9,276 nt of DNA from Thermoanaerobaculia bacterium (GTDB lineage Bacteria; Acidobacteriota; Thermoanaerobaculia; Multivoradales; JAHEKO01), in NCBI GenBank assembly GCA_029287645.1, contig JARFQS010000184.1, forward strand, positions 1 to 9,276, read 5' to 3'. The notes under the pieces were generated by a model, which was given only the letters and a program-made list of their open reading frames with translations, was not told the DNA's origin and made no database searches. Both the position numbers and the translations under genes were made by a program. Positions 1,100 through 2,536 of this stretch are shown here, one piece after another; the stretch's first letter is position 1; every line of letters starts with the position of its first letter.

Positions 1100-2536
1100 A
1101 TGCGTATCGAGCAGATCGATGAGTTTCGTTGGCGCATTCCCAGACAGGGGAAGATGCAGGTCGAAGGGCTCGTCTTCGCGAGTGCGGAGATGATGAAAGA
1201 GATAGGCCAGGACCACAGCCTTCAACAGGTGTCCAATGTCGCACACCTGCCCGGCATCATCGGAGCCTCCATGGCCATGCCCGACATCCATTGGGGCTAC
1301 GGCTTCCCGATAGGTGGAGTCGCGGCGATGGATGGCAAGAAGGGCGTCGTCTCGCCTGGGGGTGTCGGCTACGACATCAACTGAGGCGTTCGCCTCTTGC
1401 GCTCAGGTCTGAGCCGCACCGACATCCAACCCCGACTGCGCGACCTCGTCACCCGTCTGTACCAGAACATTCCGACCGGCATCGGCAAGGGCCGGACCGA
1501 CCTGCGATTGAATCGGCAGGAGCTGAGCCGGGTCCTCGGCAGGGGGGCAGCCTGGGCTGTCGAGAAGGGGATGGGCGTCTCGGAAGATCTCGAGTATCTG
1601 GAAGAGAACGGTTGCCTCGAGGGTGCGCGACCGGACCTGGTCTCGGACAAGGCGTATCAAAGGGGACGCAATCAGCTGGGTACTCTGGGCTCTGGCAATC
1701 ACTTCGCGGAGATCCAGTACGTGGCCGAAATCTACGACCCAACGGCGGCGACGGCCCTGGGCCTGTTCTCGGATCAGGTGACTCTGACCCTGCACAGCGG
1801 GTCGCGGGGCCTCGGTCACCAGGTCTGTTCGGACCATATTCGGATCATGGTGGAAGCCGCGGCGCGCTACGGGATCGAGTTGCCCGACCGCCAACTCTGT
1901 TGCGCGCCAATCCAGTCGCCAGAAGGCCGCGACTACCTGGGTGCCATGTCGGCCGCCGCCAACTTCGCCTTCGCCAACCGCCAGGTCATGACCCACTGGG
2001 CCCGCGAAAGCTTCATGCAGGCCTTGCATCTCGGGCCCAGCCAGGCGAACCTCGAAGTGGTCTACGACGTCTGTCACAACATCGCGAAGTTCGAGACGTT
2101 CGAGATCGACGGCAGGCATCGACGTCTCTGTATCCACCGCAAGGGAGCTACCAGAGCCTATCCACCCTTTCACCCGGAGACCCCCGAGAGATACAGGGAA
2201 GTCGGCCAGCCGGTCCTGATCCCGGGAGACATGGGGCGCTATTCCTATGTATTGGTGGGTACCGAGAGGGCCTACAGCGAGACCTTCGGCTCGACATGCC
2301 ACGGAGCCGGAAGGAGGCTGAGTCGCAAGCAGGCCAAGAAGCAGACCCGAGGGCGGAGCCTGCTGGACGAGCTGGAGAGAGAGGGTGTCGTTGTCATGGC
2401 CGCTGGAATGGCCACCGTCGCCGAGGAGATGCCCGAAGCCTACAAGGATGTGGCGGCGGTCGTGGATGTGGTCGAAGGGGCAGGGATCAGTCGCAAGGTC
2501 GCGCAGCTGAAGCCGATCGGGGTCATCAAGGGATGA
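1100..2536 (+). CDS. rtcB: RtcB RNA ligase, predicted selenoprotein (Sec95 encoded by in-frame TGA)
   Basis: 3'-phosphate/5'-hydroxyl GTP-dependent RNA ligase used in tRNA splicing or RNA repair. Read through the TGA at 1382-1384, the product is 478 residues, the usual RtcB length. Before the TGA lie MPDIHWGYGFPIGGVAA and SPGGVGYDIN; after it GVRLLRSGLS continues in the same frame. Remaining active-site residues are D92 (GYDIN), H201 (GSGNHF), H232 (HSGSRGLGHQ), H326 (CHNIAKFE) and the guanylylated H401 (STCHGAGR). They match Pyrococcus D95, H203, H234, H329 and H404 with offsets of 2-3, so codon 95 aligns with metal-ligand Cys98. The protein ends with the family-typical LKPIGVIKG. Start ATG 1100 has GGAGG at 1086-1090 and 9 nt spacing. 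A SECIS-like hairpin follows the TGA. Without Sec insertion only an inactive 94-residue fragment would form. Alternatives are a sequencing error or a fresh nonsense mutation; the intact flanks and the hairpin argue against both. The lipB and rtcB stops are TGA, so general UGA reassignment is unlikely. Confidence 0.88.
1382..1384 (+). other. In-frame TGA, predicted selenocysteine codon
   Basis: The TGA interrupts the frame exactly between GYDIN and GVRLL, at codon 95 of rtcB. In RtcB proteins this place is an invariant cysteine that bridges the two catalytic metal ions. TGA in place of a Cys codon at a functional cysteine is the standard signature of a bacterial selenoprotein gene. A TGT or TGC codon would need only one base change, so a sequencing error has to be excluded. 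Confidence 0.85.
1398..1418 (+). promoter_or_regulatory. Candidate bacterial SECIS element
   Basis: The RNA can fold TGCGCTCA (1398-1405) against TGAGC-GCA (1410-1414 and 1416-1418) with a single bulged C at 1415, giving eight pairs and a four-base apical loop GGTC at 1406-1409. The loop begins 21 nt after the TGA, and both of its first two bases are G. Known bacterial SECIS elements have the loop about 16-37 nt after UGA and a G in the first two loop positions. The core AGGTCT is identical to the loop region of the E. coli fdhF SECIS. A difference is that the bulge is a C on the 3' side rather than the U on the 5' side that E. coli SelB reads. Folding was done by eye. Confidence 0.72.

What the first reader, a model, noticed from the sequence alone, without database searches (positions are those of the whole stretch)
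1100..2536. RtcB RNA ligase that is apparently a selenoprotein
An in-frame TGA replaces the invariant cysteine codon of GYDINCGVR, codon 95, equivalent to Cys98 of Pyrococcus RtcB that ligates both catalytic metals. All other catalytic residues (D92, H201, H232, H326, H401) are intact, the frame stays open for 384 more codons, and the length and C-terminus are normal. An inactivating mutation landing exactly on the one functional Cys, with no other decay, is improbable. I do not recall RtcB among the commonly listed bacterial selenoprotein families, but cannot search to confirm novelty.
Basis: partly seen in the sequence, partly recalled or inferred. Interest (0 to 1): 0.95.

Follow-up and report, generated by a model that had tools for sequence, protein, structure and literature searches.

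The report
Selenium version of RNA ligase RtcB
The gene for the RNA-joining enzyme RtcB has, in this bacterium and in more than a hundred others, a UGA codon exactly where the enzyme's metal-holding cysteine belongs, mostly followed by an RNA hairpin like the one that guides selenium insertion, so the enzyme is likely made as a selenium-containing protein that apparently nobody has described as natural.

Summary
Confirmed and extended. Window 1100-2536 (+) is a full-length rtcB with one in-frame TGA at codon 95 (1382-1384), the position of Pyrococcus RtcB Cys98, which bridges both catalytic metals. In 396 genomes of the window's phylum TGA occurs in 13, TAA/TAG in none. A SECIS-like stem follows: 75 of 84 Sec genes against 11 expected from synonymous shuffles, with compensatory changes; a second, longer type in 36 of 38 Nitrospirota-type genes. 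SelB is found in 90 of 98 such genomes. UGA is still a stop: this gene itself ends in TGA. On a quick tree of 166 RtcBs, Sec and Cys interchange at least 16 times, 8 forced by well-supported branches. RtcB is absent from the 119-family inventory of May 2026. Sec insertion is inferred; no protein was measured. The window's 70%-complete MAG has SelB, but SelA and tRNA-Sec were not found in it; same-genus genomes have all three. Why selenium: most likely oxidation resistance of the metal ligand (inference).

The parts
1100..2536 (+). rtcB, predicted selenoprotein RNA ligase, 478 residues with Sec at 95; ends in TGA
1382..1384 (+). in-frame TGA codon 95, predicted Sec, at the position of Pyrococcus Cys98 that bridges both metals
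   Evidence: metal ligands from PMC10630183 (passages)
1398..1418 (+). SECIS-like hairpin: 8 bp with one bulged C, loop GGUC at 1406-1409, predicted -9.2 kcal/mol
   Evidence: same GGUC loop as E. coli fdhF
588..1010 (+). archease gene, RtcB activator; its start overlaps the stop of the lipB gene before it (TGATG)
   Evidence: PF01951, 134 bits; archease beside Sec-rtcB in 95 of 117 loci

Best explanation
The TGA at codon 95 of this rtcB is most likely read as selenocysteine, directed by the hairpin that follows it, so that the gene would make a full-length RtcB RNA ligase whose metal-bridging residue is a selenol instead of a thiol. Shown here: an intact RtcB frame on both sides of the TGA; the same TGA in more than 100 other genomes, with Cys codons as the only alternative seen; a position-specific hairpin downstream kept beyond what the protein needs; SelB in the same genome and in most such genomes. 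Inferred from known biology: SelB binds the hairpin and delivers Sec-tRNA-Sec to this UGA, while the terminal UGA ends translation. Inferred: Sec95 bridges the two Mn ions as Cys98 does in Pyrococcus RtcB, archease helps guanylylate the active-site histidine, and the enzyme joins 2',3'-cyclic-phosphate (or 3'-phosphate) and 5'-OH RNA ends. Proposed, untested: selenium is used because this ligand is RtcB's weak point for oxidation, and an oxidised selenol is easier to reduce back than an over-oxidised thiol.
For: Recurrence at one codon: 117 stretches, all rtcB; 93 of the 95 whose end is held stop at a normal length. TGA-specific: TGA 13 of 396 genomes, TAA/TAG 0 of 396. Nitrospirota: 7 rtcBs with one TGA, other stops only in two partial pieces; Desulfobacterota: 21 listed with one TGA, none listed with TAA/TAG, list cut; for 24 of these 28 I saw that the TGA is at this codon, for G656, G672, G708, G820 I did not look. 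SECIS: stem of 5 bp or more in 75 of 84 (synonymous-shuffle mean 11, maximum 20 in 100 rounds); in the second register pair 21-33 is C-G 11, G-C 8 and pair 22-32 is A-U 10, U-A 10 of 21; Nitrospirota type 36 of 38 (shuffle maximum 17 in 200 rounds) against 5 of 33 Cys relatives. Machinery: SelB 90 of 98; tRNA-Sec at 60 bits or more 26 of 32, ARAGORN tRNA-SeC with anticodon TCA in 9 of 9 loci tested, seven of them from TGA-rtcB genomes; SelA 30 of 35 handles. UGA remains a stop: 33 of 93 intact Sec-rtcB genes end in TGA. Sec/Cys sister genes and fossil hairpins in Cys relatives.
Against: No selA and no tRNA-Sec found in the window's own MAG (70% complete). 8 of 98 such genomes lack SelB over the cut-off. 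Two of them, G125 (Ca. Magnetobacterium casense, L064) and G102 (L040), are below cut-off for SelB, SelA and a 60-bit tRNA-Sec alike; G102 has sub-threshold SelA and SelB pieces, G125 no SelA match at all. SelB is also in 23 of 25 relatives whose RtcB has no internal stop, so its presence does not discriminate within this phylum. Some Cys genes also have the stem: 14 of 34, above their shuffles (mean 4.9, maximum 9). Two of 117 genes break their frame further down (L063, L092), and L092 is the family genome G006. Engineered Sec98 in Pyrococcus RtcB caused cleavage of the protein (PMC4150793, section 17). Nearly all record titles are metagenome-assembled genomes.
Confidence: 0.94

Rival explanations
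1. The UGA is decoded as cysteine or another standard residue by a suppressor tRNA or a general change of the code.
For: Only TGY alternates with TGA, so Cys would fit the site; tRNA-Sec was not found in the window's own MAG.
Against: UGA ends lipB, rtcB itself and the PaaA-like gene of the window and 33 of 93 intact Sec-rtcB genes elsewhere. A general recoding would need no stem after this codon. A SelB-dependent tRNA charged with Cys is not excluded; the nine tRNAs examined are typed tRNA-SeC.
Confidence: 0.04
2. The gene is broken: sequencing error, assembly error or pseudogene.
For: Draft MAG; two of 117 relatives carry a second frame break.
Against: Same TGA in 117 stretches of other genomes, TAA/TAG in 0 of 396 genomes, intact catalytic residues, conserved hairpin, 93 of 95 genes of normal length.
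Confidence: 0.01
3. The UGA is a real terminator and a C-terminal piece restarts at an internal TTG, giving a split or short RtcB.
For: The protein database holds 379-residue pieces that begin right after the UGA site (20 of 120 listed rows), as gene callers would predict; the internal TTG lies at 1397.
Against: The split would remove the metal ligand itself; the stem is far commoner in TGA than in Cys genes; Cys relatives are one continuous frame.
Confidence: 0.01

Closest known systems
Cys-type RtcB RNA ligase (Pyrococcus horikoshii PH1602, Thermus TTHA1785, human RTCB)
   Same: Homology over the whole length (human: from query residue 40 on), same catalytic Asp and His residues as Pyrococcus, archease neighbour
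   Different: Cys98 replaced by UGA/Sec, with a SECIS-like hairpin in the coding region
Bacterial selenoproteins, e.g. E. coli formate dehydrogenase FdhF
   Same: In-frame UGA at a metal ligand (FDH: Mo or W, PMC13188914) and a hairpin with GGUC loop just downstream (nt 22-25 in fdhF, 25-28 here)
   Different: An RNA ligase, not a redox enzyme; its Mn-type ions are not known to change oxidation state in catalysis (recalled)
Engineered P. horikoshii RtcB U98 (PMC4150793)
   Same: Sec at the same residue of the same family
   Different: Artificial, by UAG and an engineered system in E. coli; reported to cleave a nearby peptide bond; no natural case is mentioned in the passages and section read
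Intein-containing RtcB
   Same: Insertion at the same codon (split matches in 3 Nitrospirota genomes; NCBIfam intein model)
   Different: The intein is spliced out and leaves Cys (recalled; Pyrococcus Cys98 is a splice junction); no UGA

Membership tests
RtcB RNA ligase (PF01139) | Full-length match to the family | tested here: met
   589 bits, profile 1-426 of 426
RtcB RNA ligase (PF01139) | Asp/His metal and guanylylation residues | tested here: met
   D92, H201, H232, H326, H401 align with D95, H203, H234, H329, H404 (metal roles; guanylylated His404 recalled)
RtcB RNA ligase (PF01139) | Bridging Cys | tested here: not met
   TGA instead; would be met functionally if Sec is inserted
RtcB RNA ligase (PF01139) | Ligation of RNA ends | not testable with these tools
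   needs enzyme assay
Bacterial selenoprotein | In-frame UGA aligned with Cys of homologues | tested here: met
Bacterial selenoprotein | SECIS hairpin just downstream | tested here: met
   predicted structure and covariation; SelB binding not tested
Bacterial selenoprotein | UGA homologues in other Sec-using organisms | tested here: met
Bacterial selenoprotein | selA, selB, selC in the same genome | tested here: inconclusive
   own 70% MAG: SelB yes, SelA and tRNA-Sec not found; same-genus G001, G002 have all three; selD was not searched
Bacterial selenoprotein | Selenium in the protein | not testable with these tools
   needs mass spectrometry or 75Se labelling

The most novel reading that the evidence does not exclude
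RtcB is a widespread, previously unlisted selenoprotein family: a selenium-dependent RNA ligase in which a selenolate bridges two Mn ions. Bacteria keep the oxidation-prone metal site of RtcB alive by swapping sulphur for selenium, the job that PYROXD1 and thioredoxin do for human RTCB, and they have switched between Sec and Cys at this one codon many times, which ties RNA repair to selenium supply.
Probability: 0.5. Interest if true: 0.96.

Novelty: new variant of a known kind. Interest (0 to 1): 0.93.

Why it matters
Known selenoproteins are thought to be mostly redox proteins (PMC13188914), and that 2026 inventory of 119 families lists no RNA ligase. Here Sec would be a bridging metal ligand in an RNA-joining enzyme, found in records of at least three large phyla and probably overlooked because gene calling cuts the gene at the UGA (20 unnamed post-UGA pieces among 120 listed relatives). 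RtcB's metal-binding Cys is called its Achilles heel for oxidation (PMC13247085), so natural Sec/Cys pairs, some between sister genes, would test directly what selenium buys an enzyme that does no redox chemistry.

Tried and rejected
Weak tRNA-Sec hits in the window's own genome turned out to be tRNA-Ser and tRNA-Gly, so I do not count them; suspecting that tRNA-Ser can also pass the 47-bit gathering score (5 of 14 named controls pass it), I counted only hits of 60 bits or more (my own cut-off). Overall folding energy of the 45 nt after the codon does not separate Sec from Cys genes (-15.8 against -16.1); only the fixed-position stem does. RNAalifold gave no structure for the pooled non-Nitrospirota set, whose stems sit in two registers. 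SelB presence does not separate Sec from Cys genomes inside the phylum. Viral contigs: no TGA and no TAA/TAG match (no Cys pattern was run there, so this says little). Rfam found nothing over threshold in the window. A predicted structure was not made, since PDB relatives align over the whole length.

Papers seen: PMC9312934 (passages, table section), PMC13188914 (passages, parts 1-2 of 3 of section 7, which hold Table 1), PMC12013277 (passages, section 7), PMC4150793 (passages, section 17), PMC12263435, PMC13247085, PMC10630183, PMC3973293, PMC1586002 (passages; in the last, selenocysteine occurs only in a reference title). PMC12013261 and PMC9879109 are not held; Deng et al. 2026 was seen only as cited. 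'Not in print' rests on searches, judged by titles and abstract starts except for the papers named, and on those two tables.

Full report
WHAT IS THERE. The + strand frame 1100-2536 runs ATG to TGA with one internal stop, TGA, at codon 95 (1382-1384) in GYDIN-TGA-GVR. Read through, the protein matches Pfam RtcB over all 426 positions (589 bits) and Thermus and Pyrococcus RtcB chains of the PDB from query residue 3 to 478. Counting along that alignment, codon 95 is Pyrococcus Cys98, and D92, H201, H232, H326, H401 are D95, H203, H234, H329, H404. One Mn ion is held by Cys98, His234, His329, the other by Asp95, Cys98, His203 (PMC10630183, passages): the TGA stands at the one residue that touches both metals. 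None of the eight other window genes checked has an internal stop. The gene upstream (588-1010) is archease, RtcB's activator; archease-rtcB operons are known (PMC3973293, passages), and an archease match lies beside Sec-rtcB in 95 of 117 loci, 90 upstream and 5 downstream.

NOT A PRIVATE MUTATION. Among 98 related genomes (own included; 62 with a match), 3 genomes in three genera of the family carry rtcB with one TGA, and it is at the same codon; the two same-genus genomes have TGT (90 and 88% identical proteins). All 117 lie in an rtcB frame (BLASTP downstream 117 of 117, upstream 116 of 117, L139 being cut by its contig end). 22 run off the held stretch; 93 of the remaining 95 end 378-390 codons on, and 2 (L063, L092) break earlier. 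Record titles name Nitrospirae, Deltaproteobacteria and Desulfobacterota families, Acidobacteria, a Planctomycetota, a Binatia and a Methylomirabilota MAG. Two of the 117 are the family genomes G006 and G010 again (L092, L125). After removal of identical sequences 121 distinct Sec genes remained, all sources of that point pooled.

WHY IT IS NOT DECAY. In 396 genomes of the window's phylum the motif with TGA occurs in 13 (own included) and with TAA or TAG in 0. In 148 Nitrospirota genomes (122 with a match) 7 have rtcB with a TGA, and other stops occur only in two partial pieces; in 198 Desulfobacterota genomes (174 with a match) 21 listed rtcBs have one TGA and none listed has TAA/TAG (the list is cut). 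In 24 of these 28 I saw the TGA at this codon; four (G656, G672, G708, G820) were not fetched. With any codon allowed at the position, fetched loci show TGA 153, TGC 53, TGT 15 and nothing else (not deduplicated; many loci were chosen for TGA).

WHY IT IS NOT A NEW CODE. UGA ends lipB, rtcB itself and the PaaA-like gene in the window and 33 of 93 intact Sec-rtcB genes elsewhere.

THE SECIS-LIKE ELEMENT. With the T of TGA as nt 1, the window folds nt 17-37 (1398-1418) as an 8-bp stem with one bulged C and a GGUC loop at nt 25-28. E. coli fdhF (typed stretch found in 5369 of 5426 E. coli genomes) has GGUC at nt 22-25. I split distinct genes by the eighth residue after the codon: N, or origin in the Nitrospirota search, counts as Nitrospirota type, so the split is not strictly taxonomic. 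Of the other 84 Sec genes, 75 have a stem of at least 5 bp in one of two fixed registers; synonymous codon shuffles give 11 on average and at most 20 in 100 rounds. In the second register (21 genes) pair 21-33 is C-G 11 and G-C 8, and pair 22-32 is A-U 10 and U-A 10: both sides changed together. A per-sequence fold gave a similar picture: 77 of 84 Sec, 4 of 25 Cys. Of 34 other-type Cys genes 14 have the 5-bp stem, more than their shuffles (mean 4.9, maximum 9). This excess includes window-genus genes L007, L008 and Desulfobacterota genes L227, L230, L234, which look like SECIS fossils in genes that recently went from Sec to Cys (or Cys genes poised for the reverse). The 38 Nitrospirota-type Sec genes have a different, longer stem (nt 15-21 with 48-54): 36 of 38 against shuffle mean 10 and maximum 17 in 200 rounds; pair 18-51 is C-G 25, G-C 8, U-A 3; the 33 Cys genes of that type show it in 5, as in shuffles. 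Sequences are related, so shuffle numbers are not probabilities.

MACHINERY. SelB over the NCBIfam cut-off: 90 of 98 Sec-rtcB genomes reached from 98 of the 117 loci (17 loci not sent, 2 not held). tRNA-Sec at 60 bits or more: 26 of 32. ARAGORN calls tRNA-SeC, anticodon TCA, in 9 of 9 loci tried, seven of them from TGA-rtcB genomes. SelA: 30 of 35 TGA-rtcB handles, two of which repeat genomes and which I chose to include those without SelB. Controls: over cut-off in 14 named genomes SelB 2, SelA 1, tRNA-Sec (47 bits) 5. But SelB is also in 23 of 25 relatives of the order and class whose RtcB has no internal stop (19 close RtcBs, 17 with SelB; 6 distant ones at 34-37% identity whose codon I did not read, all with SelB), so within this phylum SelB says only that Sec insertion is possible. 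The window's MAG (3.13 Mb, 638 contigs, 70% complete) has SelB (359 bits), 85-86% identical to SelB of the same-genus genomes, hence probably not stray DNA; SelA and tRNA-Sec were not found in it. G001 and G002, same genus, have all three. In the window's family (18 genomes) 15 have SelB and 15 a 60-bit tRNA-Sec. G125 and G102 are below cut-off for all three; G102 has partial SelA and SelB pieces, G125 is unexplained.

HISTORY. A tree of 166 full-length RtcBs (100 Sec, 66 Cys; from 221 loci with the motif after dropping cut and identical ones; quick IQ-TREE, Sec column masked, 48 of 163 inner branches weak, long-branch warnings) needs at least 16 Sec/Cys changes, 8 of them forced by branches with SH-aLRT of 95 or more; shuffled labels need 52. 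The window sits with its two Cys congeners (100*), then with the Sec gene of G010 in a 7-row group (96*). The direction of changes was not tested.

HOW IT LIKELY WORKS. SelB would bind the hairpin and bring Sec-tRNA-Sec to UGA95, giving a ligase with a selenolate bridging two metal ions. Why selenium? A review calls reliance on the metal-binding Cys RTCB's Achilles heel: oxidation removes the metals and the activity (PMC13247085, passages), and human cells protect it with PYROXD1 (PMC12263435, passages). A selenol that can be re-reduced would be another safeguard; better metal binding is an alternative. Neither was tested here. A caution: Sec placed artificially at this residue of Pyrococcus RtcB led to cleavage of a nearby bond (PMC4150793, section 17).

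NOVELTY. RtcB is not among 87 families listed in 2022 (PMC9312934) or 119 in May 2026 (PMC13188914). Full-text searches pairing RtcB, RNA ligase or tRNA-splicing ligase with selenocysteine, selenoprotein or selenium showed, by title and abstract start, no natural Sec-RtcB; the one paper on Sec in RtcB is the engineered one. None of the four NCBIfam hits is a Sec-RtcB model. Two Haft papers and Deng et al. 2026 could not be read. Among the 120 best proteins listed for the read-through query, 20 are unnamed 379-residue pieces that begin with [M/L]RSGLSR, just after the UGA site.

Noticed in passing
G592:C1:359341-362208, G602:C23:31308-34166, G641:C40:7234-10098 (Nitrospirota): RtcB matches split at query residues 93-96 inside one open frame of 964-971 aa: very likely inteins inserted at the same codon that is Sec elsewhere.
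   Followed up: no
L007, L008, L227, L230, L234: Cys-type rtcB genes that keep the SECIS-like hairpin; L234 (Cys) is sister to L236 (Sec) in the tree.
   Followed up: partly
38 Nitrospirota-type Sec rtcB genes among L039-L148: A second, longer SECIS-like architecture (stem nt 15-21/48-54) at the same codon of the same gene.
   Followed up: partly
G125 (L064, Candidatus Magnetobacterium casense MYR-1): TGA rtcB but no SelB or SelA over cut-off and no tRNA-Sec of 60 bits or more; draft genome gaps or something else.
   Followed up: no
G006:C238 / L092: TGA rtcB with an additional frame break about 287 codons after the TGA; error or real decay not decided.
   Followed up: no
window 5298-6641: 447-aa protein with only a weak PaaA/PaaC match (40 bits) between a GNAT acetyltransferase and proline dehydrogenase; role not examined.
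   Followed up: no
window 586-590: lipB stop and archease start overlap (TGATG), suggesting translational coupling of lipB, archease and possibly rtcB.
   Followed up: no
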